Shown: piece by piece, positions 2,338-61,200 of the stretch
Layout of the letters: every line of letters begins with the position of its first letter
Numbering within the stretch: the stretch's first letter is position 1
The notes under the pieces: model-generated
The model's database searches: none
What the model was told of the DNA's origin: nothing
Seen by the model: only the letters and a program-made list of their open reading frames with translations
Assembly (NCBI GenBank): GCA_017979445.1
Contig: JADQWC010000082.1
Location: forward strand, 1 to 64,000
Origin: Akebia trifoliata
Taxonomy: Eukaryota > Streptophyta > Magnoliopsida > Ranunculales > Lardizabalaceae
Reading direction: 5' to 3'
Length of the DNA: 64,000 bases
Made by a program: the position numbers and the translations under genes

Positions 2338-2625
2338 ATAAGTTTTCTATGTCTACCAAAACTTCTAACCTATGTAGGACAAAACATGTTGGGCAAAACG
2401 TAGGGCAAATTGTAGGGTGCCGAACATTCCCTATATATATATATATATAGGGTTCCGTTCAACACCCAACAATTTGCCTAACATGCTTTGTCCTACATGG
2501 GTTAGAAGTTTTGGAATGGGGCTGATTTTTGGTGAGGATGATCTCAATGGTGAGGAGATCACCCTCACCAAAAATCAGCCCATTCCAAAACTTCTAACCC
2601 CATCACAAAAAGTATCTTTTACTAC
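2338..2625 (+). mobile_element. Family A MITE: two partial copies joined at a (TA)n tract
   Basis: The right end of one element runs to about 2431 (reads GGGTGCCGAACATTCCC), followed by a (TA)n tract, then the left end of a second element from 2450 (GGGTTCCGTTCAACACCC). The second copy keeps one hairpin, about 2498-2605, built on TTAGAAGTTTTGGAATGGG facing CCCATTCCAAAACTTCTAA. The apparent open frame across it is an artefact of the palindrome. Confidence 0.8.
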
Positions 2626-2639
2626 ATAATAAAATACCC

Positions 2640-4735
2640 TTTAATAAATATTTTAAATTACAAATAGGCGCTTTCGATACATGTGCAATTGCATAAGCCA
2701 CCTCCTAGTTTAGTTTAACGAGGGAGGAACCACCTTTCTTGAATATGTCAACACATACTCACAATGGGACCACCTTCCTCGCAATGGAAAAGTTTGAATA
2801 TGTGAAAAGGATCTTTGTGCATGTGAGGGCAATGAAAAATGAGTTGTCTCGAAGTTCACTTCCTATAGTCCTAGTAAAACTTTGAGGTTTACTATGGCGT
2901 CAAGTCACATGTATCTGCAATTTTTCGTTAGGAATGAAAAACATTCATATCGTATGAGTGCCAAGACATGTTTACCTATAATACGAAATTATCTTTATTA
3001 TAAATCTAGGTTACACCTTGAAAAGGTTGCCTATGCACTCAAATAGGTATCAAGCCACATGTAGTTGATGGTTAAATATTTATTTCGAGTAATGATTGAC
3101 TTGTATGGGCATAATAATAATAACGGAAACTATTGCAAAAAGTATTCATACAGAAAGTATGTAATGATTTATTGAATGCATTTTTATATCTAAACTTCTA
3201 TTGATTGAGGGACTTGCAATGTATAAATGGAAAAAAAAAAAAAAGGCTAACATGGTTAAAAAGCTTAGGAAATGTTTATAATATTGTGCAGTTTTATTAT
3301 GATCCGATTGAAGGCCACTAATTTAGGTCATTGAAAGAGGTGTACCTTTACTGTAAAACTGGAAGTCGTCCATCCAGGGGGAAGGGAAAGAATGCTAAAG
3401 CTAATTTTCGATAAGCAAGATAATAACCTATTTTTTAGTAGATCCACCAGGGAATTTACTTCTTTTTATTATTTTTATCTACATGTGGTTCTGTTACTTT
3501 TTATAGGCTTTGGACTATTTTGATCCATGTGCACAAAGTGGATCTAATTGGATCAGCAAGAGGGTAGAAAAACCAGCTTCGATCTTCGACTTTCCCAAAA
3601 AGGTAAGATTGGTTTTTACCAGTGATGGTGAAAGATCAAGGTTGGCATTTGTTGGTGATGAAAGGGGTTGTCGAATCCTATCTACAAGAATGGGCTGTAG
3701 CTTCTGCATCTTTGGCCCATTGAAGTTTGGCACCTCATTATGAAGGTAACCCCATATAGTCTTTATCCTATTGTGTATCCCTAGCAAAGTTATATTATAA
3801 AACTCCACTCTGTAAAACTAGAGAAGATTAGTTGTTTGGACCCCACGATTTAATTATATTTCTCTATTGGCTTGAAGTAGTAAGTTGTGGGGGGACCCTT
3901 GTCATTAGCAAAAGAAATCTCTGTCAAATATTAATAAATGAGTAGATATGCAAGTGTGCAGACGTGGTAGCTGTATGGGGTGTGTTTAATATTATATTTA
4001 AACCTAATGAATAAAGTTAAATACACCATTGTTCACTTTGATTAGCTTTATTGGTCTTCTTTTAAGGGGTATTCCAAGATGGATGTACTTGGAGATGTAT
4101 TTTCTATTTTAAAGGCAACCCACTTTGATGGGTTTTAATGCAGAAAGATTTTCTATTTACAAGTTGCTGCATATTCGGTATGAAGTAGCAGCTACCTTGT
4201 CTTTTTATTCATGAAATTTTAATAGTCGTTTAGTTTCTTGAGGTTTATTTCATATTTTAATGTGATTTTGGTAATAATGGAGATTTCTAACATACAAGCT
4301 AATTTTATGGTGGAAAACATCTATCGTTAAATGGTCTTGTTAATAATACTTACTAATCTTGATAAGTGACATTGGCTTTATAGTTACTGTAATTTCATGG
4401 GTGTTTTAGGTTTCTTCTGACATTGTTGTCGTGCTTTCTTTTCTTAAAGTTTCCAATCCCAAACGTTTTCCAATGAGTAGATCTGGTTATGGGGGCGTAA
4501 GGGACAAACAATTCTATTGCTAACCAATGGTGAAGTACTTGGGAATGGTAGTTCTAGTGACAGTGGATCTCTAAATGAGGGACAATTGCGGTTTGTTTCT
4601 AGTAGTATACGACATTTTATAATTTCAATGGTGAAGTATTTAGTAATTTATAAATTATTACTAATTGTAACTCTTTTTTTCTATAAATGAATGTGATAGA
4701 GAACCTCAATGCTCGCTATTTCTGCCTATTTTGAC
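2640..4735. other. No recognised gene
   Basis: AT-rich sequence with poly-A runs. Open frames of 77 and 97 codons overlap on opposite strands near 3510-3808; neither resembles a family I know and each can be a shadow of the other. I see no clear transposon end here. Confidence 0.4.
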
Positions 4736-15543: not shown

Positions 15544-18500
15544 TCAAAGTGCCTCCGAATTAAGTGTATTTGCCACATCGATGACGAATCTGTATTTAAC
15601 ATCACCTTTGGCAAGTCGCTCCATAGCTGTATTCACGTAGTCCATCGATATAACCTCTATATCTGCTGTTATATTGTGTTTCCCTGCAAAATTTATCATC
15701 TCCTGTGTCTCTTTCATCCCACCAATGCCACTACCTGCCACTATCTTCCTCCCTATCAAACAAATCAACATTTTCGTTGTTAGTGAAACCACAACCAAGC
15801 TTATTCTGAAATCCAGATACTAATTATGGATTGAATAGTCTTTCTAGTTACAAGTTACTGATGACGAATTGATGACAATGATCGTAATTATGAAAACTTA
15901 CCCATAAGCAAAGGGAAGATAGGTAGCTCTAGCGGGTTATCCGGAGCACCCAACATAACCAGCTTTCCATGTGTCTTCAATAGTCCGATTAATGGAAGGA
16001 GCGGATGAACAGCAGAGACTGTGTCGACAATACCATCCATCGTGCCCATTGCAGCCTGAGATATCAATAATATTAGTGTTAGAACTAGGACTAGCTACCC
16101 CAGCCTGACCTAACCCACAATTATATTTTATATATGTATATTATACATAATTTGATATATAATTTTTGTAACAAAAATAATTAAAGCATATCATAAAACT
16201 CCAAATTTTTCCTCATCTATAACAGTTTTTTAACTTGGAAGGAGATTTGATCCCTATTTTGATAAAAAGTAAACATCAAATGACTTTAAACAACTTCGAA
16301 AGGTTCTGGTTGTGTGTTCAAAACTGGGTGGCCACTTAATTTATCATGTTGTGTTAACGTTGGGAAACTTTTGTGGGGCCAAGGCATGCAGTCGTAGGGA
16401 CGTGGGATACCCTACATTATTGGGAAAAAAAAAATTGATTATAGACAAATTGAAAAGCTAAGCAGTGGTAATTCGTCCCAACCAGTTAGGGCCAAGGCTT
16501 AACCCACTTCGGTATTTCGGATTTAGGCCTGGTCTAAGATATAGTCCACATGATATAGGGTTGGATTAGGACTCATCCAAGCTTAGCTCGAACTTTCCCA
16601 TTGACAGCCTTAATTAAAACATGAAATGCACTACATATGTAGCTAATCCTACGATTCCAAGCACATTGGGTCAAATATCAAGTATGTATGCTATAGATTG
16701 GTTCTAAATTGGCCCTGATATCCATCAACAATATGTGACATATACAACATCCATTCATTTACCTGCATCTCTTCTGGATCACGACTAACCAAGAATGAAT
16801 CAGCACCAAGTCGTTCAATTGCTTCCTTCTTCTTGTTGATAGAAGTGCTGATCACCGTAACTTTCATCCCAAAAGCCTTGGCAAACTTCACAGCCAGATG
16901 ACCAAGCCCACCAAGCCCCACTACACCCAAATGTTTATCAGGATCGCTCAGTCCAAAATATTTCATGGGGCTGTAAACTGTAATACCACCGCACAATAGC
17001 GGTGCAACCGCATCTAGGGGCACATTTTCTGGGATTTGGACAACAAAATGCTCATCCACAACAATCTTCTCTGAATATCCACCATAGGTTTTACTTCCAT
17101 CGTAGTAATTGCCATTGTAGGTGAGTATTAATTTAGGGCAATAGTTTTCTAAATCGTGAACACAGCTGTCACATGAGCGACATGATCCGATCATGCATCC
17201 CACACCCACCTTATTTCCCACTTTGAATTTTGCTACATTGCGCCCTACCTCTGTCACTACGCCAACAATCTCATGCCTACACACGCAAAAAGGTTATGGT
17301 TTTAGTGTTAAGATGATTTCAATAGGCAAAGTACTTCTCTAAGTAATGTTTTGGTTAAGAAAAAATCTGAAATCGTCTCAACTGAAAAATTCCTAGACAT
17401 TTAGAGATAAATTGATGAAATATTTTCGAAACATTGAATGTTTTGGGGTCAATGTTTCATTCTAGTTTTGGAAACTTATATGTCTCGATGTAGAAACATT
17501 GTGAAACTAGAGGAACTTTGAACCATGACCCCAAGCAAATGGCTATGATGATAATAATGATAGTGAAATGGAAAAGATGGAGTACCCAGGGACCATAGGA
17601 AAGAGGGAACTGCTTGAGAACTGTTCGATGCCTTCAAGCGCAGTTGCCCATTCATTCTTAATGGAGTGAAGGTCTGAATGGCAGATTCCACAATAAAGTA
17701 TCTTCATGGTGATATCGTTGTCGCCATTGGCCCTGCAAACATATTGATAAGGGTCATGATCAAGGGCCATATGAAAAAACATATGTAAAAACAATGTAAC
17801 ATTAATAAATTTTCAAAATATGAATTAGAAGTTTTGGATTGAGCTGATTTTTTGTGAGGATGATCTCAATGATGGGAAGATCGTCCGAAAAAAAAATCAG
17901 TCCAATCTGAAACGTCTAACCCCATTAAAAGTGATTTAGAATGTGGACCGTCAATTTTTTGCCAATTTTTATCAATAATTTGTAAATCACTTTTGATGGA
18001 TTTAGAAGTTTCAGATTGAGCTGATTTTTTGTGAGGATGATCTTCTCATCATAGTGACCATCCTCGGAAAAAATCAGCTCAATCCAAAACCTCTAACCCA
18101 TATTTTGAAAAACCATTGTTTTTACATATGTCCCTTGAACCGCCCCCTATTGATAAAGGTCAGTAAATTCATTCTTTGATCAAACATATTAATAAAAAAG
18201 TTTTTGGTAAAAATATTTTGACCAAATGTGTAAATTAATATTATATTCATGAAATGATGGAAATATAATAGAAGTGATGATGGAAATAATGAGTGTATTT
18301 TATTAAAATCTATATTACAAAATTCATTGGTACTAGACTGAATAATGAATTGAATCGAATTGGAACGAAAAAAACCAGTTGGCGGTAATTTCATATTGGA
18401 ATCCTGGAATACAGTGAACAACATATATTTTAGAACTAGTATTTTTTTTTTTCAAAAATTAAAATAAAGTATATTTCAGTAGGATACATTGATCAACAAA

Positions 18501-19230: not shown

Positions 19231-19960
19231 GTAAAATAGGGATTGGGGAGGAGAAATTCAAAAGTTTAAATACATTGAAATGGAATTCCGACTTTTCTAA
19301 GAGAAACATTTCCCTTACTAACATAATAAGATTGTAAGTTTTACTAAGGGTCGTTTTGCTCAAATGGATAACCACATCTGCAAACCAACATCACAGCCCT
19401 CTAAGTTTCTTTGAAAAACTCAGATAAGAAATAAATAAATAAATTTTTAAATAATTTCTTTTGAGATCTAAGGTTTTGCCACTGACTTCTATATTACTCT
19501 CAAACTTAATTAGAATTAAAATTCAACAGTGAAAAATAACTATTTGAAATAAAAAAAATATTCAAAATTCATATAATTTTATTCTCTACAATCATAAAGC
19601 ATCAGATTATGTTTTTAATGCCAGCAAGGTAAATCCAAGGATCCTTAGTGAGAGTGAAATCCTTACTAACTTAGTAAGGTTAGTCGGACACTTTTAAAAC
19701 ATATGTTTATTGCGACTTTCTACTCGTCCAACGGTCAAACCTATGTTGATTAGTTTAATCGCTTGATTTGAACTTGGGTTTCTTGTCCGTTACTCAAGAA
19801 TGAACCCATTTCCTAAAGACAATTCGTTTCTTTATTGACTTAGGTTTGTTAATTTATTTTGGTATTCCGATTCACTTGTGCATATGTGTGTATATGTATA
19901 ATATAGATATGGGAATCGTTCAAGAGTCAAATATTTTGCAAACGTATTTCATCCCATATG
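19231..19960. other. CAD upstream region, no recognised gene
   Basis: AT-rich flank upstream of CAD. I see no coding frame or clear inverted repeat. Any distal CAD promoter elements would lie here but cannot be named from sequence. Confidence 0.35.
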
Positions 19961-19964
19961 AGTT

Positions 19965-20060
19965 ACAAGTTTTTGTAATAAGTTGATTTTTTGTGAGGAT
20001 GATCACTTTGCAAAAGAGATCATCTTCACAAAAAATCAGCCCATTTCAAAATTATACCCT
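19965..20060. mobile_element. Family A single hairpin
   Basis: TGATTTTTTGTGAGGATGAT faces ATCATCTTCACAAAAAATCA around a short loop, with diverged flanks. It is a solo hairpin without the outer termini. Confidence 0.65.
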
Positions 20061-38999: not shown

Positions 39000-40256
39000 A
39001 GCTGGTCACTATTGTAAATTAGGCAATTAAGGGATGATTATAAAAATGTCATCCATAAACTACAAATTCCTATTATTATCATGAATATATCTTTTTCTCT
39101 CTTTCTGACTATTTTCGCATATAGGAGCTTGATAGAGATACAAATTATGTTGAGAAAAAACTCACCTGCACCATATTGTTGAGTGATTTACTAGAGGCAA
39201 GTCCTAATTGCCTGTCCTTCCATGAAATTCCATTGCATACAAGTTCGATCTTAAATGATCAGCAAGATCTTCTATATCCAAACCGGTGCTCTTTGCCCGG
39301 CCTGATTTCAAGAACTAGATTAGGATTGCTCTCTCAATACTCAACTCTATCAAAAGACAAAAGTCTAGTTTACTCAGTAAGTTTATGTAAGAAAAGTCAT
39401 CATCATCAAAGCCTTATCCCAAAAGTATGTGGTCAACTAACGTTCTTATAGAAGTCCATTATGAAAAGAAGAAATCATCCAAAAGCCATATCAGTGGTAG
39501 GGAAGAACTAAAAAAAATCATGGAAGATAAACATCACCAAAGCTTTATCCCAAAATTTCAGGGTCGGCTAGACAGATCTCACTGGCTCATTCAATCTATC
39601 TATGTCAATGTTTCTAGTAAATATAAGTGTGCTCATAACCACACTCACTACCTCAGTGCAGTGCTACTTGCTATTCCTCTCGTTCCTTTATAACCAATTA
39701 TGGAAGAAAAAAATGAAGCAAAAAAGAAAATCTATTTATTAGAAATTTTAGAAAAATAGAAAAATCCCAATTCCAACTAGGGAAGGGATTCAAGGGCCTT
39801 ATATCCTCATAGAGTACATCCATCATTGAATCAATGACCACAATATGATGTAACATGAGGAAGGAATTGAAGAAACTGGACCACAACTTACAAGTGTCCT
39901 AAAATGGAAAAACAATAATATGAAGAGTGAGACTAACTGGAGAAGTTGCACAGAATTTATATATTTATCATAAATATCCTAAAAATAAAAAAGTTAATAA
40001 TAAAATAGTTTAAAATCTATACTTCATACCAGTTTTATGGGTCACACATCTTCTTCACAGCTTTACAGAGACCAAACGCAGTCTAATATAACAGGATTTG
40101 ACAATTTATAGCCTGAGTAATATGGCCAAAATTCTGTCTTTTAGTCCATCATATCTCCTAGATGTGTCTCCCTTACACAATTGTCGCTCAGCACAAACTC
40201 TAGAGCCTTCGTGGCAACAGGGAATCTCTTCATCTTGCCTACTGACTTTGCATGGT
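39000..40256. repeat. CTTATCCCAAAA..GGTCGGCTA dispersed repeat copies
   Basis: TCATCATCAAAGCCTTATCC near 39395 and CACCAAAGCTTTATCCCAAA near 39533, followed by GGGTCGGCTAGACAGATC, match a SINE-like repeat widespread in plants (usual form CCTTATCCCA..GGGGTCGGCTACATG). Diverged copies lie near 58915 and 59045. No gene is seen in the rest. Confidence 0.5.
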
Positions 40257-43079: not shown

Positions 43080-43690
43080 AAAAAGTAGAAAAGGATTTGT
43101 GTACACATCGAAAGCCAGTGTGGAGACACAAAAAATAAAAATATTAATAATAATCACATAAAGTATTAAAAAAGTGAAAAAGAGTACGTGTCTAGACAAT
43201 GAGAGGAAAGAAAGAACCACCAAGGGGGCGGTTGAATGGTACTGAAATGGGGTCAAGGAGTCTGCTCCTTCTTTGGTCTCAAGTTCGAATTCTATTACCC
43301 ATAAAAAATCTTGGTGGCCATGCATTGTTTCACGTAAGTGGGGTGAAGCTTGGATGCGGGGCATAGGGACTAGTCTGGTGTGCGCAAGCTGACCAGGATA
43401 CCCTTCATTATCAACAAAAAAAATATATATATATAAAAATAAAAAGAAGGAAGAAAGAAAAAGAGGGAGAGAAGACTTGACTTTAAATACGTAAAATCTC
43501 CTTGGATCCTAATTATTTCAATATAACCCCTTTGAATTTTTTATTTAATGTTAGGGGAAATTATCAAATCAGAAGAGAAAAAGTTGAAAATTCCTAAAAT
43601 GGTAGACTTCATTTTAATTTTGAAAATGATAACTTACCACTTTTGAAATTAAAATATTTTACACATGTAGGACAAGAAATATTGTTTTAT
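43080..43690 (+). repeat. Duplicate of the LecRK upstream region (without the gene)
   Basis: Blocks here align in order with 47170-47660, just upstream of the first lectin receptor kinase. Shared pieces: TTTGTGTACACATC, CATAAAGTATTAAAA, AAGAGGGAGAGAAGACTTGA, AAATACGTAAAATCTCCTT, ATTTCAATNTAACCCCTTTG, TTAATGTTAGGGGAA and GTAGACTTCATTTTAATT. The kinase itself is not repeated here. Confidence 0.75.
43216..43430 (+). mobile_element. tRNA-type SINE with paralogous empty site
   Basis: Contains a box A-like segment near 43230, box B-like CAAGTTCGAATTC at about 43280, GCAAGCTGACCAGGATACCC and a TTATC plus A-rich tail. It interrupts a stretch that is continuous in the related sequence at 47.28 kb, between GAGGGAAGAAGG and AAAAAGAGGGAGAG. 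A GGAAGAAAGAA-like duplication flanks it. Confidence 0.65.
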
Positions 43691-44504
43691 AAAGTGAAAA
43701 ATTTTAGTAATATATTTTACTAAAATTATAGCAGAAAATATATTTATTATTTATAAATGATCCAGATGAGATGTTGATTGTGTCATCGATACTCTCTCTG
43801 TAGATATTTTAAATCAGGTTAGGCTAAAAAAATCAAATAAATTGACAATGATCAACCCATGGGGAAAGACTTGGATAAAAGGCTTTTTTATTATTATTTT
43901 ATATTTGAGAAACCTTGACAAATTTTCAAAATGATGACATGCCCCTCTTGATTCCTTTTCAAAGATGACTTCAATGCACTTATCATTATCTTCGTCGCGA
44001 ACAACTTATTGTCACCTCGTCATCATCATCTTACCCAAGTGGTTGAATATAAATCATCGAGATCGTCACCTTGATAAATAAATAAAATATCAACGGTCTC
44101 ACTACTTAATATCAACATGATTGTCTCTTTGAAAAATCTATCATGTTGCACTTCATGTTTTGAAATTCTTTTAAAAAACAGAGTGAGTTGGAATTGGAAT
44201 TTTGTTATATTTAACTCACGAAAAGGTAAACCCTGTAAAAAATGATGCTTCCACTTAATTGTCTGTATTTCATTCCAGGGAGTCAAAGTTGTCAAGCTTT
44301 TTTTATTCAATGGTATGTATGAAACATATTGGTGTGCAATATATATTTTTGGGGTTCAAATCGTATGCAACAAGCATGGAGGGTACATATCCTCCTCCCA
44401 CATTTCAAACTTTGCCAATTAGGACCCTCCAAAACATAAAATTAGAAAGATTCTCCTTGTAGAACAAAACGCTAAAATTGATTTTATATTTTATATATAT
44501 ATAT

Positions 44505-44690
44505 GGGTCCCTTGGGCACCAAACAATTTGCCCAACATGTTTTGTCCTACATGGGTTAGAAGTTTTGGAATAGGCTGATTTTTTGTGAAGCTGATCTCTA
44601 CACCATAGAGATTATCCTCACCAAAAATCAGTCCATTCTAAAACTTCTAATCCCATCACAAATGGTTTACAAAAAATGGATGGTCCACGA
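44505..44690 (+). mobile_element. Family A MITE, truncated, single hairpin
   Basis: Starts GGGTCCCTTGGGCACC after a (TA)n tract, has one hairpin on TTAGAAGTTTTGGAATAGGC, and breaks off in the linker (GGATGGTCCACGA) at the next (TA)n tract. Confidence 0.75.
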
Positions 44691-44700
44691 TATATATATA

Positions 44701-44754
44701 GGGTCCTGTTCAACACCCAACATTTTGCCCAACAATTTGTCTAACATGTTTTGT
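44701..44754 (+). mobile_element. Family A MITE left-end fragment
   Basis: GGGTCCTGTTCAACACCCAA through AACATGTTTTG only, bounded by (TA)n tracts on both sides. Confidence 0.7.
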
Positions 44755-44769
44755 TATATATATATATAT

Positions 44770-45136
44770 GGGAAATGTTCAATACCCTACATTTTACCCT
44801 ATGCTTTACCAAACGTGTTTTGTCCTAGATGGGTTAGAAGTTTTGGAAAGGGCTGATTTTTGGTGAGGATGATCTCTACGATTAGAAGATCCTCCTCACC
44901 AAAAATCAGCTCATTCCGAAATTTCTAGTCCCATGTTTACAAGTTGAAAAATCAAGGACCGTCTATTTTTTGTAAATATTTTTATGGGGTTAAAAGTTTT
45001 GGAATGGGTTAATTTTTGGTGAGGATGATCTCCTCACTATAAAGATTATTCTCACCAAAAATCAGCCTATTCCAAAACTTCAACCCATGTAAGACAAACA
45101 CACGTTTGGTAAAACGTAGGGTGGTGAACAGGACCC
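44770..45136. mobile_element. Family A MITE, complete double hairpin
   Basis: Termini GGGAAATGTTCAATACCC and GGTGAACAGGACCC. Two hairpins on TTAGAAGTTTTGGAA and TGATTTTTGGTGAGGATGAT flank a linker with GGACCGTCTATTTTTTG. (TA)n tracts lie directly outside both ends. Confidence 0.85.
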
Positions 45137-45154
45137 TATATATATATATATATA

Positions 45155-45523
45155 GGATCCTGTTCGGCATCCAACCATTTACCTAACAATTTGCCCATCA
45201 TGTTTTGTCCTACATGGGTTAAAAGTTTTGGAATAGGCTGATTTTTGGTGAGGATGATCTCTATAATTAGAAGACCCTCCTCACCAAAAATCAGCTCATT
45301 CCGAAATTTCTAATTCCATGTTTACAAGTTGAAAAATCGTGGACCGTTCATTTTTTGTAAACCATTTTTTATGGGATTATAAATTTTGGAATGGACTGAT
45401 TTTTGGTGAGGATGATCTCCTCATCATAGAGATCATCCTCACCAAAAATCAATCTATTCCAAAACTTCTAACCCATGTAGGACAAAATACGTAAGGTAAA
45501 GTGTAGGATGCCGAACGAGACTC
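45155..45523. mobile_element. Family A MITE, complete double hairpin
   Basis: Termini GGATCCTGTTCGGCATCC and GGATGCCGAACGAGACTC, with two hairpins and the GGACCGTTCATTTTTTG linker. (TA)n lies on both sides; the left tract is shared with the preceding element. Confidence 0.85.
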
Positions 45524-45549
45524 ATATATATATATATATATATATATTA

Positions 45550-46425
45550 AGATTCTCCTTATAGAACAAAACACTAAAATTGATTTTATATTTTTTATAT
45601 ATTTATTGGTAGCGTAGGGAGTATCCCCATTTTAGGTGAGATTAGTCTATCTGGGGTGCATGCACCATCCTACCTGTCATATGTTACGAAATTTAAATAA
45701 TCATAATTTTATGGAAGGGCACATAGATATTTGAAGTTATGATTTAGAAAGAATCCTGGGGGAATGGACAGTGTTTGTAAATAATAACAATATAAAATAA
45801 ATTTTGATTTGTTCTACAGGAGAAGCTTCCTAATTTATTGCCTTGGAGAGAATCCTAATTGGCAACGAGGTGTGGGAGGAGGATTTTTACACTCCACGCC
45901 GGGTGCATACGAACTGGACTCATAATTTTATATTTGAATCTCAGAGAAAGGACTTTTATATTGATGTACACCCCAAACTTTTATTATGAAACATCCTTTA
46001 TTCTTTGGCTTTTTATAAGCACATAATTTCATTTCATCTCTATGTTTTTTTTTTTTTTTTATTCTTTGGCTTTTCTTGATGGATGGTCTTTGAACTTCTC
46101 GAGCCGATTTATAATACAGGCATTTGCCCTCAAAATAAAATTTAAAAAAATATAAGAATTTTATACTACTACACTAATAATAGTGGCACAAAAAACAGAA
46201 TGATTCATCACTATTGTTCTTACAAGAATTTTTAATTGCCTTACCTCAACCCACAAAATCCTGATTCCACCCTTGGAACTTTCTATTGAGCTATCAATAG
46301 AGGCGGTTGTGTTATAATTGAAAGTTGGTGTGGCAAAATAAGTGGGATTATGATGAAAATTAGGATAAAGAGATAAATCTCTAAAATGAAATTGGAGAGA
46401 CATTTATAATTTTTATTTTTTTATG
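45550..46425. other. No recognised gene
   Basis: AT-rich. The AAAACACTAAAATTGATTTT stretch at 45560-45590 repeats the sequence just left of the family A array at 44465-44485, so it may mark an old duplication around the array. An 80-codon frame at 46.2-46.4 kb is unrecognised. Confidence 0.35.
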
Positions 46426-47169: not shown

Positions 47170-47660
47170 AGGTTTGTGTACACATCAAAGATCAATGTGA
47201 AGACAAAAAAATAAATATATAATTAATAAAAATCATAAAGTATTAAAATAAAGAAGACGTCTCTAATCTCTATGACGTGAGAGGGAAGAAGGAAAAAGAG
47301 GGAGAGAAGACTTGACTTTCCTAAATAATTCATCTAATAAACGCGAGATACAATTAATTTAATTTTTAGCCAACAACAAACCAACAACCAGTTTCATCAC
47401 TTGAATAGAAAAAAATGGGGATTTATAGTATTACTTCCTTCCAAAATTTTAAATACGTAAAATCTCCTTAGATTTTCATTATTTCAATCTAACCCCTTTG
47501 AATTTTTATTTTTGAACTTTTTAGTTTCTACTTAATGTTAGGGGAATTATCCAATGGGTAGGGAAATAGTTGAAAATTCTGAAAATAGTAGACTTCATTT
47601 TAATTCTGAAAATGATAACTTATAATTTTTGAAATTAAAATATTTTATGTAGAGTAATGA
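47170..47660 (+). promoter_or_regulatory. LecRK upstream region (duplicated at 43.1-43.7 kb)
   Basis: This 5' flank of the first lectin receptor kinase is repeated in the same orientation about 4 kb upstream. The copy here has an extra segment (about 47320-47440) that the other lacks, and lacks the SINE. No firm TATA box was identified. Confidence 0.6.
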
Positions 47661-47845: not shown

Positions 47846-48188
47846 CAGATTGAATTACAAAATAAGCACCTTTTTACGTTGGTAGAGATGTTCATCATAG
47901 GATCAACACAGTACTTTATTTTATAATTTTTGAAAAAAATATGCCCCCCAAGGGGCATATCCCCCATTTTAAGCCAAAATTATCCAAACAACCAATATAA
48001 TTAAAAATGTGAAAAGGGGTGGACAAAAAAATTAAAAGATTAGTATGTTTTTACTAATTCAAGGTATTTTATAGGGGCGATACCAAAACACCTTGAAAAT
48101 ATTTTCAAACTACATGAACTTTCATAAATGAAGTCCTTCCTTAACCTCTTCAACCTCAAATGTTCCATAGCCATCTTAGTACAAAGCA

Positions 48189-50327
48189 ATGGCTCTGCAA
48201 AACTCAAAAACCTCTCCAATTCTATCTCCAAAAACCCTTTTCTCCTTGTTCGAATTGTTGTTGTTGATGTTCTTCTTATTTCTTATACCATCTTCAAATG
48301 CAACTACCTTCAACTACCCAGACTTTCAATCATACCCAACAAAGATAAATTTTCAAAGAAATGCCTCCCACGTACCTGGATTCATTAAACTTACAGTAAA
48401 CCAACGTGATGAGCTCGTTAGCAACAGTGTCGGTCGAGCTGTTTACGCTGAACCCGTGCGCCTTTGGGACTCTACCACTCAAGAATTAGCCAGCTTTGAC
48501 ACACGTTTCACTTTCGAAATCAAAATGCTGTATCCACCAGATGGTGCTGATGGACTAGCCTTCTTCCTTGCTCCCAACAACTCCAACATCCCACCTAATT
48601 CAATCGGTAATCTCCTCGGCTTATTTGCTTCCAATTTGAAGTTCAATTCATCACAAAACCCAATTGTTGCTGTTGAATTCGACACCTTTCCGAATGAGTG
48701 GGATCCTAGATATGATCATGTGGGTATTGATGTTAACTCGATTGTTTCGGTGGCGACGTGGAATACTACGAATAAGAATGCTTTAAAGAATGGTTCTATT
48801 GGTCATGCTTGGGTTAGTTATAATTCAAGAAGCCAAAACTTGAGTGTGTACTTGAGTTATGCTCAAAATCCTGTTTTTAGTAGTCCTATAGTTTCTCATA
48901 TTGTGAATTTGAGTAATGTTCTACCTGAATGTGTTGATGTCGGTTTCTCAGCGGCTACAGGGTCGTCTTTCGAGTTACATAAAGTTTATTCGTGGGGCTT
49001 TAATTCGACAGAACTTAATACTAGCGGAGGTGGAGATGGAGTTATAGGTGGAGGTGGAGGTGGAGGAGGAGGAAAGAATAATATTGGGATGGTGATTGGT
49101 TCAGTTGTTGGTGGATCGGTTTTAGTTGGTGGGTTGGGTCTGATATTGTTTGTTTGGTGGAAGAAGAGATCTAAAGCGAAAGAAGAAGATGATGATATAA
49201 TGAGCGACATGTCCACCGACGATGATTTTGAGAAGGGAACGGGGCCTAAGAGGTTCACTTATAGCGAATTGGCTAGCGTGACAAATAACTTTTCAGAGGA
49301 AAGGAAGCTTGGAGAGGGAGGGTTTGGAGGGGTTTACAGAGGTCTCTTGACTGATTCAAAATTGGATGTAGCTGTTAAGAGGGTCTCCCAAGGATCTAGG
49401 CAAGGAAAAAAGGAATTCGTCTCAGAAGTGAAGATCATCAGTAGATTGAGACACAGAAATTTGGTACAACTCATCGGTTGGTGCCATCAACGAGCCGAAT
49501 TACTTCTTGTTTATGAGTTAATGCCTAATGGTAGTCTTGATGCTCATCTCTTCCAAGGGAAAATCACGTTAACATGGGCACTCAGATACAAGATAGCCCT
49601 TGGCTTGGCCTCGGCGTTGCTCTTGCATGAAGAATGGGAACAATGCGTGGTGCATAGGGATATTAAATCAAGCAATTTGATGTTGGATTCAAGTTTTAAT
49701 GCTAAACTCGGAGATTTTGGACTAGCAAGGTTTGTCGATCATGAATTGGGAATGAAAACAACCATGTTGGCTGGGACCATGGGCTACTTGGCCCCCGAGT
49801 GTGCTATGACCGGAAAAGCTGGTAAAGAATCGGATGTTTATAGCTACGGAGTTGTTGCATTGGAAATAGCGTGTGGCAGAAGAGCTGTTGAACCTAAGGA
49901 GGAAGAACATAAGGTAGGATTGGTAGCTTGGGTATGGGAACTCTATGGAAGTGGAAGACTTCTTGAAGCGGTAGATGCGAGACTAAGTATGGATTTCGAT
50001 GAGCAACAAATAGTGCAATTGATGATCGTTGGGTTGTGGTGTGCTAATATGGATCTTAATTTAAGGCCTTCTATAAGGCAAGCGATTAGTGTTCTTAAAT
50101 TTGAAGCTCCATTGCCCGATCTTCCCTATAAGATGACGATTCCCACACATTTCAGGTCTTCAATGAATGTGTGTGGATTCTCTCAAGCATCATCCAGCAC
50201 AGGTACTGACTCTCATACATATCAAAGTCAATATTCGCATAGCAGTTGCACCACCAACTCATCACAAGTAAGTATTTCCCCTCATTTTTCTGATTCTTCA
50301 GCTCTTCTGCACTCGGTGCCTAGATGA
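48189..50327 (+). CDS. L-type lectin receptor-like kinase (class IX type), copy 1
   Basis: Intronless 712-codon gene for a plasma-membrane receptor kinase. Order: signal peptide (about 1-39), legume-lectin domain (about 40-272, with VEFDTFPNEWDPRYDHVGID near 162-181), a glycine-rich juxtamembrane stretch with a run of nine Gly (287-295), one transmembrane helix (about 300-323), and a Ser/Thr kinase (about 355-635). Kinase residues seen: GEGGFGGVY 375-383, Lys397, HRD 489-491, Asn496, DFG 509-511, APE 536-538. It is an RD kinase with all key residues. One residue is missing in the helix before HRD: LASALLLHEEWE here against LASGLLYLHEEWE in copy 2. The C-terminal tail is Ser/Thr-rich. Members act in defence and sometimes pollen; the ligand cannot be read. 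Tail to tail with copy 2. Confidence 0.95.
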   Translation: MALQNSKTSPILSPKTLFSLFELLLLMFFLFLIPSSNATTFNYPDFQSYPTKINFQRNASHVPGFIKLTVNQRDELVSNSVGRAVYAEPVRLWDSTTQELASFDTRFTFEIKMLYPPDGADGLAFFLAPNNSNIPPNSIGNLLGLFASNLKFNSSQNPIVAVEFDTFPNEWDPRYDHVGIDVNSIVSVATWNTTNKNALKNGSIGHAWVSYNSRSQNLSVYLSYAQNPVFSSPIVSHIVNLSNVLPECVDVGFSAATGSSFELHKVYSWGFNSTELNTSGGGDGVIGGGGGGGGGKNNIGMVIGSVVGGSVLVGGLGLILFVWWKKRSKAKEEDDDIMSDMSTDDDFEKGTGPKRFTYSELASVTNNFSEERKLGEGGFGGVYRGLLTDSKLDVAVKRVSQGSRQGKKEFVSEVKIISRLRHRNLVQLIGWCHQRAELLLVYELMPNGSLDAHLFQGKITLTWALRYKIALGLASALLLHEEWEQCVVHRDIKSSNLMLDSSFNAKLGDFGLARFVDHELGMKTTMLAGTMGYLAPECAMTGKAGKESDVYSYGVVALEIACGRRAVEPKEEEHKVGLVAWVWELYGSGRLLEAVDARLSMDFDEQQIVQLMIVGLWCANMDLNLRPSIRQAISVLKFEAPLPDLPYKMTIPTHFRSSMNVCGFSQASSSTGTDSHTYQSQYSHSSCTTNSSQVSISPHFSDSSALLHSVPR

Positions 50328-51407: not shown

Positions 51408-53366
51408 TTAACGACCCACTTCAAGGCTAGAAGTTATCCTTGAAGCTTCGCTAGAACTAGCCATTGGAACAGGGATGTGAAAAGAAGGAACAGGCATCTT
51501 TGGTGGAAGGTTTGGCGTCTTTGCCTCAAATTGAAGAACATGAATTGCCTGCCTTATAGAAGGCCTCAAACTGTGATCAGGGTACGCGCACCACAATCCT
51601 ACAATCATCAAACACTCCACTTGTTTCACATCAAACTCCTTAAACAATCGTTCATCGATTGCAGTTAGAAGGCTTCCCTTCCCATAGAGGTCCCACACCC
51701 ACTCCACCAACCCCATTTGAGATTCCTCTTCCATGGGATTGACTGATTTTCTCCCACAAGCTATTTCCAAGGCCACCACTCCGAAGCTAAATACATCGGA
51801 TTCTTTACTAGCCTTGCCCGTGCTAATGTACTCTGGTGCTAAGTAGCCTAAAGTCCCGGCCAAGCCAGTAGTCTGAGGGCCTAGTTCATGGTCCATGAGC
51901 CGAGCTAGTCCAAAGTCACCAAGCTTCACATTGAAACTTGAATCCAACATTACATTGCTCGATTTGATATCACGGTGTACTACACATTGCTCCCATTCTT
52001 CGTGAAGGTAGAGCAATCCAGAGGCCAAACCAACTGCTATCTTGTATCTTATAGCCCAAGTGAGAGGACTCCTCTTTCCAAAGAGATGAGAATTGAGGCT
52101 CCCATTTGGCATGAGCTCATAGACGAGTAGGAATTCACCTTTTTCATGGCACCAACCGATGAGTTGCACAAGATTTCGGTGCCTCAACCGACTGATGACC
52201 TTCACCTCAGTTACATATTCTTTTCTCCCCTGTTTGGAACCCCTGGAGATTTTCTTTACGGCCACAGCTAAATCTAAATCACTCAAGTACCCACGATAAA
52301 CACCTCCAAATCCTCCTTCCCCCAACTTCCTTTCATCTGAGAAATTGTTGGTTGCTAAGGCTAATTCTTTAAAAGAAAACCTCTTAGGCCCAGCTCCCCT
52401 TTCGAAATCACCATTTATCGATGTGAGGTTGGCCCTCTCTTTTTCTTTCCTTGCTTTGCTTCTCCTCGACAGAATTATCCATGCTATACCAACACCACCT
52501 ATCAAACCAGCTACTGAAACAACCAATCCCACCACCAATCTAATCCTTCTCTCATTATTTCCTTCTGTCTCCTTTATGACCAAATTCGAATTAAATTCCC
52601 ATGATCGAAGAATATGTCGCTCAACAAACTGACCCGTAGCTGCTGAGAACCCAATTGTAACCCACTCTGGTAGAACTTGCATCAAATCAATAGTGTAAGT
52701 AAGAAGAGAATCTCTATTAAAAATAGGATTTAATTCGTAAGTCCAAAACACACTCAGGTTCTTCGTAGTAGCATTGTAAGTAATCCAAACATTAGCGGTA
52801 TCACCACTGTGTAAACTAGTATTCCATTTGACGTACTTAGCTGAAGCAATCGAGTTGTTGTTGATCCCCACATGTTCGTAAGGAGGATCCCATTCAGGGT
52901 TTGGAAAAGAATCAAACTCGACAGAAACAATCTGATTTTGGGCTGTAGCATCACTAGTTGTGGTGTTAAACAAGCCTAGAAATCCACCAACAGAGTTTGG
53001 AGGGATCTGAAAGCCAACACGAGCTAGAAAGAATGCTAACCCATGACCATATGAGGGAGCACCCCGGGTGTCGATAATGAATGAGAAATGTGTAGTGAAA
53101 TCTGATTGCTTTCCACTGGAAGCGTCCCAAAGGTGCACCCTTTCAGAATGGGTAGCTCGAGCAACACGGCTTAAGTAATTGACTTTATTGAATTCTATAG
53201 CTCCTACAGAAGGCACAGCATCACCCTCGTAGAGAATGTCGGCGGTATTGGGATCAAACCGAGATATTTTGAAGAAAAGTGAGAGAGTAGAGGGAACAAG
53301 AAAGAAGGAAAGAAATAGGAAGAGAAGGACATGGGTGTTTTTAGATGGAAATTTGTAGAATGACAT
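51408..53366 (-). CDS. L-type lectin receptor-like kinase (class IX type), copy 2
   Basis: Intronless gene, 652 codons from the chosen start. I use the Met of MSFYKFPSKNTH because it puts a signal peptide (about 1-29) at the N-terminus; the open frame extends 44 codons further upstream to 53498 without adding a domain. Order: legume-lectin domain (about 30-258, with VSVEFDSFPNPEWDPPYEHV), transmembrane helix (about 277-299) and kinase (about 330-610). Kinase residues: GEGGFGGVY 349-357, Lys371, HRD 464-466, DFG 484-486, APE 511-513. All are present, so it is probably an active RD kinase. It differs widely from copy 1 in the lectin domain but is close in the kinase domain. A truncated paralogue of its 5' end lies at 56.7-57.1 kb. 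Confidence 0.94.
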   Translation of the reverse strand: MSFYKFPSKNTHVLLFLFLSFFLVPSTLSLFFKISRFDPNTADILYEGDAVPSVGAIEFNKVNYLSRVARATHSERVHLWDASSGKQSDFTTHFSFIIDTRGAPSYGHGLAFFLARVGFQIPPNSVGGFLGLFNTTTSDATAQNQIVSVEFDSFPNPEWDPPYEHVGINNNSIASAKYVKWNTSLHSGDTANVWITYNATTKNLSVFWTYELNPIFNRDSLLTYTIDLMQVLPEWVTIGFSAATGQFVERHILRSWEFNSNLVIKETEGNNERRIRLVVGLVVSVAGLIGGVGIAWIILSRRSKARKEKERANLTSINGDFERGAGPKRFSFKELALATNNFSDERKLGEGGFGGVYRGYLSDLDLAVAVKKISRGSKQGRKEYVTEVKVISRLRHRNLVQLIGWCHEKGEFLLVYELMPNGSLNSHLFGKRSPLTWAIRYKIAVGLASGLLYLHEEWEQCVVHRDIKSSNVMLDSSFNVKLGDFGLARLMDHELGPQTTGLAGTLGYLAPEYISTGKASKESDVFSFGVVALEIACGRKSVNPMEEESQMGLVEWVWDLYGKGSLLTAIDERLFKEFDVKQVECLMIVGLWCAYPDHSLRPSIRQAIHVLQFEAKTPNLPPKMPVPSFHIPVPMASSSEASRITSSLEVGR

Positions 53367-53499
53367 GATCATGATGACTTTTCTTGAGGTAGAGAAAGAG
53401 GAGGGATGAATGAGATCAAGAAATGAAGAGTGTTCATACTGCAACTCGACATTTATCATAAATTGCTCCTCTCTTTTTTTCCATGTCTTGATGCTCAAG

Positions 53500-54215
53500 T
53501 ATCAACTACTACTATTATTTTATAATTAGATGGCTGTTTGGACTTTGGAAGATAACAATGTCACCACCTCAAATTATAAAGAAAGACCTAATATAAGATT
53601 AGGAAGAAACACTTCAACATAATGTTCATACTTGAACAATAATGTTCATGGGAACATAATAAATTGATTTTTACCATGCCAAGCTTCTTCCATTGACCTG
53701 GCACGTGTACTAAATTTGATGTAGTACCTTAAAAATCAATCTGAACCATTGATCTGGTGAGATATGTTTTTCTAGAGTAAGTCAATGAGAAGAAATCTTA
53801 GTGTCTGGCACGTTAAAATATATTAAAATTTGTTTCTTATGTTTTGGAAGATATATAGTTAGTTAGAATCACTCAAATCTTTTTATTTTTGGGTTTCAAT
53901 CACAATTCACCATTACTATGACTTATTAAGAGATAAAATAACACAGACAGGATTCACGCAGCCAAGTTCAGCTTCATAAGGTTCACTGATTTGAATCTTT
54001 TTTTCCATGAGTCTGCCATAACTCTGAAACAGGTTCTCATATTGTGTAATATTGAATAGGTATCAACAGAAATTTCATAGTGAGTCAAGTGATCTTTCAA
54101 AAGAGGAGTAGCTGAGAAATCAGATCCACAAGATAACAATTGTATAACTTTAAACTCGAGGGATTAACATAAGAGACTAATGACAATCTAACACTCTTTT
54201 TTCAGACGCCCCATG
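53500..54215. other. LecRK copy 2 upstream region, no other gene
   Basis: AT-rich 5' flank of kinase copy 2. No firm TATA box, coding frame or inverted repeat was recognised. Confidence 0.35.
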
Positions 54216-57245: not shown

Positions 57246-57390
57246 TTTTTCTTTTATATTTATGGGGCAGGATTGTGATCCAACGTGTTTTGTAAACTGG
57301 CGTTAAAAGTTTCGGAATTGGCTGATTTTTGGTGATGTAATATCTATGTATACATAACACATGGGATAAATCATTGGATCTTGATCGTGG

Positions 57391-57427
<37 letters not shown>

Positions 57428-57808
57428 GGGAAATGTTCAGCACCCTAAGTTTTACCACACACTTTAACAAACGTTTTTTGTCTTACATGGGTTAGAAGTT
57501 TTGGAATGGGCTGATTTTTGGTGAGGATGATCTCTATGATTAGAAGATCATCCTCCCCAAAAATCAGCCCATTCCGAAATGTTTAGCCCCATGTTTACAC
57601 GTTGAAAAATCGTGGACCGTCCATTTTTTGTAAATCATTTTTGATGAGGTTAGAAGTTTTGGAATGAGCTGATTTTTGGTGAGGATGATCTCCTCACCAT
57701 AGAGATCATCCTCACCAAAAATCAGCTCATTCCAAAACTTCTAACCCATGTAAGACAAAACACGTTTGGTAAAGTGTGTGGTAAAGCTTAGGGTGCTGAA
57801 CGGGACCC
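57428..57808. mobile_element. Family A MITE, complete double hairpin
   Basis: 381 bp between a (CT)n(TA)n tract and a (TA)n tract. Termini GGGAAATGTTCAGCACCC and GGGTGCTGAACGGGACCC. Two hairpins on TTAGAAGTTTTGGAATGGGC / TGATTTTTGGTGAGGATGAT flank a linker with GTGGACCGTCCATTTTTTG. A small extra fragment (GGCTGATTTTTGGTGATG) lies at 57300-57345. Confidence 0.88.
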
Positions 57809-58271
57809 ATATATATATATATATATATATATATAATGCCCTAACAATAAGTGTGCGTCCATGGCATACTAACATGTGAGCCCACCGTGTGATCACTACT
57901 CTTGTCTTGACTGCAATCGCCAACCTAAGTTTGCTCGGGACTGTATTGTTGAATGAAATGTCTTCCGCTCATGCCCATTTGCACCTTTGAGTCCATGATC
58001 TCATCCAATACAGCCCCAACCAGCCATGAGCCAACACTGAAGAAATAAACTACATTATCTATAGGGTAAAAATAAGGGGCCGAAGCTCATCAGGTTTTCT
58101 TTCTAGGGGGTTTGGAGGGCCTATAAGTTTACTGTTTCCATTTTACATGACCTCAATGAATTTAATATGGTCAAACTTATGGCTTCAGATAATCTCGCAT
58201 CCACATACATAGAAATAGAATACATATTACTTGAATCAAGGACTAAATATCCCCCACAAAATTCAAGTTTG

Positions 58272-61200
58272 CTACTGCAGATGATTGCTATCAGCTTTTT
58301 TCTGGAAGAAGATTGATCCAAGTAGAACAGCAATGCCCATTATTGCAATGGTGAACATTACTAATCTCTGCGATAAGCCAATTGGTGGTTGCCTTCTTTC
58401 AGCATCTTGCTCTCTTTCAGGCGCACTACTGGGTGGTTCACTTCACAGTCCACATATCAAAATCCTTAAGATGTTAAAAAACAAGGTAAGAGAATCTAAA
58501 TTATTTATTTCATGTAAATGATAATGAGTAGTTTAAGATCCTAACATTATACATGAACACCATAAAACGAACCAGATTGCTTCAGTTTGTGAAAGCTTTC
58601 AACTACGTTAAAATACCCCGCTAAGTCAGACAAAACAGAGATCTAATACATATTTGTTGGAAAAATTTGTTACACTGGCCAATACAGAGGATTAAAGTAA
58701 AAAAATGGGGTTTTTCACAATCTCAACAAAAAAAGGAAAGAATTTCCAAAAATTGGGAAAAACTTTGATTTCTTACTTTATCCTAAATGTCAACAATCGT
58801 GCGTGAGTGAATTAGGTGTACAGCTTCAGGTGACAGACAGCTTGATCAGATCAGATTTTCCAGAAAAATAAAAATGCCACACAGGTACTGGCATTGATAT
58901 CAGACTTATCATTGTCGTCATCAAAACCTAATCCCAAAATATCAGGGGTAGACAGACTGTAGGTAGGACTCAAATTACAAACTACTAATTCATTAGCATA
59001 AATAAATTATAACTATCTAATCATAATCTTATTTACAATTTATCATCACCACCACCAAAACCTTATCCCAAAAATTTGGAGACCGCTAAACAAGCATTTT
59101 TCCTCTATTCAATTCTGCGTTCATATTTTTCCAATTTTTTAAAGGATGTTTGTATTTGACTTGTACCCAAATTTGAAGCGGATATCCAAGTCAGATGTAT
59201 ATGCCTCTGCAGTCATATTCACTCTTCTTATGTCAATCCATGTCCTTTTGTTTCTTCCTCTTGTTCTTTTAGAACCTCTAACTTGCATGTTCGTTCTAAT
59301 TGGGGATGTAATCAGTGTTTGTTATTCATGATCAAACCATCTCAATCGACTTTCTATTAGTTTATTGCATATTGTGGCTACTACTACATTTTCACAAGTG
59401 CCTCCATCTCTAATTTATCTTTCTTTCCACTCATTTATCTCAGGATCCTCGTCTATGCTACACATATATTGTGTTGACTCCCTCGCTAACCTTATCAATT
59501 AAGGGTCCCGTTCAACAACAAATATTTTGGCAAAACATTTTTCAAAACATGGGTTAGAGGTTTTGGAATGGGCTGATTTTTGGTGAGGATGATCTCTACG
59601 GTGAGGAGATCATCCTCACCAAAAATCAGCCCATTCCAAAACTTCTAGCCCCAGTTTTCATGTTGAAAAATCGTGGACCGTCCATTTTTTGTAAACCATT
59701 TTTGATGAGGTTAGAAGTTTTTGAATGGGCTGATTTTTGGTGATGATAATCTCCTCACCGTAGATATCATCCTCACCAAAAATCAGCCCATTTCAAAACC
59801 TCTAACCCATGTTTTGAAAAATGTTTTGCCAAAATGTTTGTTGCTGAACATTTCCCATCAATTAATACTACATCCTAAGCAAACAATATACATAAAGGGA
59901 CCATTTGTTTGCCAATGAATTTTGAGTTGTTCCATGCAAGATTTAAAATGTCACATCGATTGAATTTTGAGTTGTTGCCATACTATGTGTGCTCTTTAGT
60001 TTCCTCCAGCCTCCTAGTTCTTAAGTTGCCCGTATGGTCTTCATATAATAATATTTTCATACACCAATTCATTAAAATTTTGGTGAAGCAGCCACATATT
60101 CTCTAAAAAAAAATGTAGATCTATCAATCTTCAATCCAGCTCAAGATATAATAAAAAGTAATCCGATGTTGGATTAGGAATATTAAACTAGATGGCCGAG
60201 CTAAAATGCTCCTCCCACAAGTGGCCTATTAGGAATCTATCCAACCAAGATACAATACGATAAGATTTTCCCATCCATTGGACCAGGTATAGATCTCCCT
60301 CCCCCCCCCCCACAGGCAAAGGAATGTCCATCAACATATTATGATTGATGAATTTCCCCAATCTTTTCATTTTCCTAGTTACCCTTGAGACTACTTTCCT
60401 TCCAAAAGAGCATCGTATGACAGTGAAGCCACCCCCAAGACACCATTGATGATCCCAATACATGCCCACATCATCAAGTTCCCCCCAAAAATAGATTAAG
60501 TTCACCTTAAAAAAAAATTGACATCAAGAAAGCACCTTCCACTTCAACAAAAAAGGGCTTGTTTCAGGTTGAGTAGGCAACCATATGGAGAACAAATTGG
60601 TAATTCCCTTCTATGATATCTTGCAAGACTTCTCCAAGAGCAGTCTCATATTGAGAAGGTTTCAGGTAAGTTTGTTCCTCCCAGAGTGGAGGTTTTCTCT
60701 TAGACTCTAGTATTGGATGATATTTTGGGAGAACTTTATTCGTTAAATATTTGTGATTTGCAAGAGAATGCGGCTTCCATTTTTCTTAATATTAGTTGCT
60801 TCTTTCCTTGAGATAGTGGGGTCTGTTTTTAGTTGTTCCAGTGGCATGTTCACCACGGAGGTAAGATCCATCCATTTTATCTTTGCTAAGGACTTTGGGA
60901 AGAGTGGCATAGAAGGATCTTAGACAATAGAAGCCAACCAAAGCTAGAAGTGGGAAATGTCACCAGGAGATTATTGATTGGTAGTATGACCAGATAGAAG
61001 GACAAATAACATTACCCAAATGGTGGAGAATAGTTGGTAGAGCTGATGATCATATGAAGGTTAGAACAAATTCAATAATGAAGGAAGCGTTATTTGATCT
61101 CCTCATCTAGTTGACATTGGGCTTGTGCTTCCAAATGATTGTGGCGAATTGATTAGGGTGTTAACCAAGAGGAGTGGTGAACTCTAATGAAGATGGGGTT

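What the first reader, a model, noticed from the sequence alone, without database searches (positions are those of the whole stretch)
59494..59865. Double-hairpin MITE of Mutator type with a perfect 9-bp target duplication
The element has an unusual plan: outer inverted arms of about 49 bp, then a 100-bp hairpin, a 57-bp linker, and a second 100-bp hairpin of almost the same sequence. Each half is a palindrome and the two halves are also inverted copies, so it can fold as one long stem or as two cruciform arms. The perfect ATCAATTAA duplication shows it moved as a unit and suggests MuDR-type transposition. I do not know this architecture as a named family.
Basis: partly seen in the sequence, partly recalled or inferred. 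Interest (0 to 1): 0.8.

Follow-up and report, generated by a model that had tools for sequence, protein, structure and literature searches.

The report
Microsatellite-seeking plant Mutator-type mini-transposon
This is a short plant jumping-DNA element built of two hairpins, one of several relatives in the same 64-kb stretch, most of which sit in TA-repeat tracts, and it belongs to a kind of Mutator-type mini-transposon already described in other plants.

Summary
The element is 59503-59856 (354 bp): 50-bp outer arms, a 97-bp hairpin, a 60-bp linker, a second 97-bp hairpin, and a perfect 9-bp duplication ATCAATTAA. It is not alone: the window holds four more full copies (17751-18147, 44770-45136, 45155-45523, 57428-57808) and six fragments. 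The second full copy outside a microsatellite also has a perfect 9-bp duplication, TATTGATAA. Of 15 termini recognised, 10 abut a (TA)5+ tract; 8 of the window's 10 such tracts touch the family. Four copies form a non-nested array joined by TA tracts. This matches published microsatellite-targeted Mutator-like elements: MuTAnT (Medicago; foldback of four similar segments, mostly in (TA)n, 9-nt duplications elsewhere), SaTar (guayule, rice, sorghum, citrus) and pineapple Ac-mMITEs. So plan and behaviour are known; the family is a new member, apparently in a Ranunculales-like plant. Possibly new: outer-arm type goes with target (type A at 9-bp-duplication sites, type B in (TA)n), but this rests on five loci, and two published studies saw no such link. 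The host genome search did not complete (12 calls).

The parts
59494..59502 (.). left copy of the 9-bp target duplication ATCAATTAA
59503..59856 (+). full element E1, 354 bp
59503..59552 (+). left outer arm, begins GGGTCCCGTTCAACA; type A subterminal TTTTTCAAAACATGG
59553..59649 (+). hairpin 1 (quarters 59553-59597 and 59605-59649)
59650..59709 (+). linker, the main part that gives the element an orientation
59710..59806 (+). hairpin 2 (quarters 59710-59754 and 59762-59806)
59807..59856 (-). right outer arm, read inward GGGAAATGTTCAGCA; type A
59857..59865 (.). right copy of the 9-bp target duplication
17751..18147 (+). full copy E2, 397 bp, type A arms; 9-bp duplication TATTGATAA at 17742-17750 and 18148-18156
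57428..57808 (+). full copy E3, 381 bp, type B arms, (TA)n on both sides (57408-57427, 57809-57835)
44770..45136 (+). full copy E4, 367 bp, type B arms, (TA)n on both sides; in the array
45155..45523 (+). full copy E5, 369 bp, type B arms, (TA)n on both sides; in the array
44505..44691 (-). truncated copy in the array: one outer arm, one hairpin, part of the linker, cut off about where the TA tract 44690-44700 begins
44701..44754 (.). outer-arm fragment in the array, between two TA tracts
2356..2431 (.). right-end fragment, abuts (TA)n 2432-2449
2450..2609 (.). half element (outer arm and one hairpin), abuts the same (TA)n; orientation not settled
19911..20059 (.). diverged half element (outer arm and one hairpin); no duplication can be read; orientation not settled
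57288..57346 (.). fragment holding one quarter module

Best explanation
The element is a non-autonomous Mutator-like transposon (a MITE) whose inverted terminal repeats, about 150 bp each, each contain a hairpin, so that it consists of four similar quarter modules around a short linker. A Mutator-superfamily transposase made elsewhere in the genome most likely binds the ends, cuts the element out and inserts it with a 9-bp staggered cut, giving 9-bp duplications. Related copies in this window sit mainly in (TA)n microsatellites, where the duplication cannot be told from the repeat, and repeated insertion into one tract would build arrays joined by TA tracts; the copy in question went into ordinary AT-rich DNA. 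Shown: anatomy, two perfect 9-bp duplications, related copies, exact abutment on TA tracts, a non-nested array. Inferred: transposase in trans, cut-and-paste, target choice.
For: Anatomy and fold. Five full copies in the window, 66-89% identical pairwise, with shared core and linker; 27 quarter modules in all. Perfect 9-bp duplications at 2 of 2 full copies outside TA tracts. 10 of 15 termini abut a (TA)5+ tract exactly; the other five are the four ends of E1 and E2 and the end at 19911. 8 of the 10 such tracts in 64 kb touch a terminus. An array of four copies at 44505-45523, none interrupting another. The same habits are published for MuTAnT (14 of 218 copies not in perfect (TA)n, these with signs of 9-nt duplications; autonomous copy with a Jittery-like transposase), SaTar and Ac-mMITE.
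Against: No autonomous element with these ends was found; the broken MULE-domain gene at 930-2211, near a family fragment, matches its best homologue only from residue 300 of 821 and is not tied to the family by two ends. For the TA-flanked copies no duplication length can be read. The array is bracketed by a 58-bp direct repeat, 93% identical (44447-44504, 45549-45606), which a 9-bp staggered cut does not explain. No empty allele was seen.
Confidence: 0.9

Rival explanations
1. The TA-flanked copies were placed or multiplied by recombination or replication slippage between TA tracts (for example a circular form joining by homology), and only copies with 9-bp duplications, such as the one in question, moved by plain transposase insertion. 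The SaTar authors put forward such a model. It is not exclusive of the main reading for the element 59503-59856 itself.
For: 58-bp direct repeat around the array at 44505-45523; the inner cut-off points of 44505-44691 and 44701-44754 also lie at TA tracts; a right-end and a left-end piece face each other across one TA tract at 2356-2609; the published argument.
Against: 8 of the 10 TA-flanked termini still begin with GGG, the two of E5 with GGA and GAG, as expected from end-specific cutting. A bracketing repeat is seen at 1 of 3 TA loci: found at the array, not at E3 nor at 2356-2609; it may be older than the array.
Confidence: 0.2
2. The element is a chance or non-mobile palindrome, for instance made by local inverted duplication, and the flanking ATCAATTAA is coincidence.
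For: In this AT-rich sequence short matches are likelier than base composition suggests: 19 of 127,213 positions match by 9 bp at these spacings, the two real elements included.
Against: Related copies at several places with the same ends and core, and a second 9-bp duplication exactly at the ends.
Confidence: 0.01
3. The element belongs to another superfamily whose duplications are of similar length, such as hAT (8 bp, recalled).
For: Superfamily is judged here from duplication length, arm length and habits only; no transposase with these ends is in hand.
Against: Two duplications of 9 bp, failing at 8 and 10; long arms and (TA)n targeting match described Mutator-like families.
Confidence: 0.04

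Closest known systems
MuTAnT (Medicago truncatula), PMC4486113; parts 1 and 2 of 4 of the text read, no figures
   Same: Short Mutator-like non-autonomous element; the first copy described is 292 bp with 144-bp arms and a foldback of four similar segments; mostly inside (TA)n; for the 14 of 218 copies outside perfect (TA)n, 9-nt duplications.
   Different: Other plant family; an autonomous member is known there, none here.
SaTar elements (guayule, rice incl. Micron, sorghum, citrus), PMC5907723; abstract, Results and part 1 of 2 of the Discussion read
   Same: Non-autonomous MULEs mainly in (TA)n, modular arrays without nesting, many families with some members flanked by target duplications, deletions and fusions within arrays.
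   Different: Guayule duplications are 10 bp (citrus 9 or 10). A hairpin within each half is not described in the sections read. They report no link between subtype and insertion mode.
Ac-mMITE-1 and -2 (pineapple), PMC8449440; abstract and part 1 of 2 of the Results read
   Same: Microsatellite-targeting copies and a minority with 9/10-bp duplications within one family; clusters by adjacent insertion.
   Different: Tens of thousands of copies; first and last two bases mostly GA and TC; 510-570 and 210-270 bp; both families have similar shares of the two insertion modes.
MULEs with multiple TIRs, PMC3310237; abstract and outline only
   Same: More than one TIR module per end in a Mutator-like element.
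   Different: There the extra TIRs are mostly in tandem; here the repeated modules alternate in orientation and form hairpins.
Falling Stones (FaSt), Prunus, PMC12071656; passages only
   Same: 349-bp Mutator-type MITE with 9-bp duplications.
   Different: 82-bp TIRs; the passages seen describe no palindrome within each half.

Membership tests
Mutator superfamily (MULE), non-autonomous | 8- to 11-bp, often 9-bp, target duplication | tested here: met
   ATCAATTAA and TATTGATAA, 9 bp, at 2 of 2 full copies outside TA tracts
Mutator superfamily (MULE), non-autonomous | long terminal inverted repeats | tested here: met
   144 nt at 94% complementarity in E1; less alike in the other full copies
Mutator superfamily (MULE), non-autonomous | ends shared with an element coding for a MULE-domain transposase | tested here: inconclusive
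   host genome search unanswered 12 times; in the window only the broken gene at 930-2211, which cannot be tied to these ends
Microsatellite-targeted MULE (SaTar kind) | most copies flanked directly by microsatellite | tested here: met
   10 of 15 termini abut (TA)5+; small sample, three TA loci
Microsatellite-targeted MULE (SaTar kind) | modular, non-nested arrays joined by microsatellite | tested here: met
   44505-45523: two full and two truncated copies joined by TA tracts; one array only, of one family
Microsatellite-targeted MULE (SaTar kind) | some copies in other DNA with 9- or 10-bp duplications | tested here: met
   E1 and E2
MuTAnT family proper | foldback of four similar segments | tested here: met
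   quarter modules; compared with the published text, not with its figure
MuTAnT family proper | sequence homology to the MuTAnT consensus | not testable with these tools
   consensus file not available; only the 16-base TIR mask was compared, by eye, without clear match
MULE with multiple tandem TIRs | additional TIR copies in tandem | tested here: not met
   modules alternate in orientation

The most novel reading that the evidence does not exclude
Two subfamilies share one double-hairpin core but carry different outer 50-70 bp, and the outer arm decides the target: type A arms (TTTTTCAAAAYATGG next to the hairpin) insert in ordinary AT-rich DNA with 9-bp duplications, type B arms (TTTTGTCYTACATGG) insert in (TA)n. 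The core would then be a passenger that can be re-equipped with new arms, both together, so that target choice can be switched by arm exchange.
Probability: 0.2. Interest if true: 0.55.

Novelty: new member of a known kind. Interest (0 to 1): 0.3.

Why it matters
It adds what looks like a Ranunculales-type plant to the lineages with microsatellite-targeted Mutator-like MITEs. If the link between arm and target held genome-wide, one genome would offer a natural comparison of two arm types on a common core, and so a direct way to ask which part of a transposon end chooses microsatellites. [quoted passage not shown] a link here would be an exception to both.

Tried and rejected
Host genome: the same search of the window's own genome was sent 12 times and never answered, so copy number, autonomous partner and empty alleles remain untested. 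A 26-base exact core pattern found nothing in viral contigs or prokaryote genome contigs; expected for a plant repeat, and both tools say that records of the window's own genome may be left out.

Autonomous partner in the window: the ORFs at 810-1978 (minus) belong to a broken FAR1-related / MULE-domain gene (SWIM; PF10551, E 2.6e-15; best hit a Macleaya FAR1-related protein, 51% identity over 84% of the query). It lies near the family fragment at 2356-2431, but homology starts at residue 300 of 821 (matches at 930-2211; 819-2211 with another homologue), no N-terminal match shows in the window at E up to 1 for four homologues, and no FAR1 domain shows in the three minus frames of about 2610-3511. 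I do not claim it as the partner; a truncated host gene of the FAR1-related type is as likely. A search with one piece of it alone found nothing, nor did the solved structures.

Paralogous empty sites inside the window: for E1, E2, E3 and the array, no match of the joined flanks to the rest of the window spans the joint. Bracketing repeats like that of the array were sought and not found at E3 and at 2356-2609.

Arms more alike within a copy than between copies: so for E1 (0.88 against at most 0.69) and E3 (0.89 against 0.81), not for E2, E4 and E5. Concerted evolution of arms is therefore not a general statement here. The ends of E1 (left TCCC type, right AAAT type) are swapped compared with E3 and E4; too few copies to interpret.

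Arm type and target: by element 2 of 2 type A outside TA and 6 of 6 type B (7 of 7 counting the truncated fragment at 44701) in TA, Fisher 0.036 or 0.028. The half element at 19911 fits neither type and was left out, as was the quarter fragment at 57288, which has no terminus. By independent locus it is 2 against 3, not significant (1 in 10, my arithmetic). The types were defined after seeing the flanks. Two published studies found no such link.

Full report
Check of the observation. Sequence and repeat search confirm the plan described: outer arms 59503-59552 and 59807-59856, hairpin 59553-59649, linker 59650-59709, hairpin 59710-59806. The two halves are inverted copies (144 nt, 94%) and each half is a hairpin (92% and 87%). 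Single-strand folding gives z -26.7 against shuffles. ATCAATTAA is repeated perfectly at 9 bp and at no other length from 7 to 12.

The family. Comparing the element with the window gives five full copies: E1 59503-59856, E2 17751-18147, E3 57428-57808, E4 44770-45136, E5 45155-45523, plus six fragments at 2356-2431, 2450-2609, 19911-20059, 44505-44691, 44701-44754 and 57288-57346. Full copies are 66-89% identical pairwise. An ungapped scan with one quarter finds 27 quarter modules at 30 of 45 matches or better.

Target sites. The window has 10 (TA)5+ tracts; 8 touch a terminus of the family exactly. Of 15 termini, 10 abut such a tract; the other five are both ends of E1, both ends of E2, and the end at 19911, whose flank is TA-rich but not a tract. 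E2 has the perfect 9-bp duplication TATTGATAA. Thus both full copies outside TA tracts carry 9-bp duplications. The binomial figure treats termini as independent, which they are not in arrays; the abutment is still far beyond chance, since the 10 tracts cover 179 of 64,000 bases.

Array. 44505-45523 contains two truncated and two full copies end to end, separated by TA tracts, none interrupting another. The truncated sides also stop at TA tracts. The array is bracketed by a 58-bp direct repeat at 93% identity, and its left flank is part of a larger inverted repeat (44338-44494 with 45784-45934, 76%). No such bracketing repeat was found at the other two TA loci. The bracketing is unexplained.

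Arms. Next to the hairpin, the four arms of E1 and E2 read TTTTTCAAAAYATGG or close to it, while nine arms of E3, E4, E5 and the fragments at 2356, 2450 and 44505 read TTTTGTCYTACATGG or close to it. Type A goes with 9-bp duplications, type B with (TA)n. The numbers are small, the loci partly linked and the types were defined after the fact, so this is a lead only; the guayule and pineapple studies found no such link.

Fold. In 5 of 5 full copies the long stem is more stable on a single strand than local hairpins alone (E1 -152.7 against -97.9 kcal/mol; E2 -115.5/-71.6; E3 -155.0/-109.8; E4 -100.3/-82.7; E5 -114.8/-76.0). These are single-strand energies and do not say that a cruciform forms in duplex DNA.

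Host. In the list for the lectin receptor kinase at 48186-50327 (best 120 of 5589 shown), the highest identities over most of the query are to Aquilegia (70% over 88%), Kingdonia (69% over 97%), Ranunculus (68% over 94%), Stephania (67% over 88-90%) and Coptis (65% over 100%); by bit score the first rows are longer proteins of Tetracentron, Nyssa, Musa and others at 50-61%. The broken FAR1-related gene is closest to Macleaya and Papaver proteins. All of these except Tetracentron, Nyssa and Musa are, from general knowledge, Ranunculales. So the plant is probably in or near that order; this is an inference from two genes.

Comparison. MuTAnT (PMC4486113) has the same plan and habits, as far as its text tells; SaTar (PMC5907723) and Ac-mMITE (PMC8449440) have the same habits. 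A survey of 207 plant genomes says that Micron-type MITEs are extensive in Poaceae and Rosaceae and absent elsewhere save in a few species (PMC12550479, passages). A search with the terms Ranunculales, genome, MITE, Mutator, Akebia (at least four of five) listed two papers; the one on Epimedium counts MITE and Mutator sequences but the passages seen describe no such family (PMC3742203, passages); the other was not opened. A search for later work naming SaTar gave only the original. This is weak evidence that the family is undescribed, since only open-licence papers are held. Micron (Akagi 2001) and FARE1 (Windsor and Waddell 2000) were not read; they are cited through the papers above.

Verdict. 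A real mobile element, a new member of a known kind.

Noticed in passing
44447-44504 and 45549-45606: 58-bp direct repeat, 93% identical, brackets the array of TA-joined elements; longer than a Mutator-type target duplication of 8-11 bp.
   Followed up: partly
44338-44494 and 45784-45934: Inverted repeat, 76% identical, on either side of the array: perhaps a larger, older element into which the array went.
   Followed up: partly
819-2211 (minus): Broken FAR1-related / MULE-domain gene; its best homologue matches only from residue 300 of 821. Near a family fragment at 2356-2431.
   Followed up: yes
43445-43661 and 47280-47647: Direct repeats (80% and 95% pieces) about 3.9 kb apart, perhaps ends of a degraded larger element.
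   Followed up: partly
48186-50327 (plus) and 51408-53501 (minus): Two similar long ORFs in opposite orientation; the first is an L-type lectin receptor kinase, the second judged by its likeness to it (inverted repeats).
   Followed up: partly
39397-39440, 39528-39571, 59046-59089: Three copies of a 44-nt repeat around CACCAAAGCCTTATCCCAAAA, which from memory resembles a widespread plant SINE; not tested.
   Followed up: no
59492-59499 and 17743-17750: The two non-microsatellite target sites share, on opposite strands, the string TTATCAAT; may be chance.
   Followed up: no
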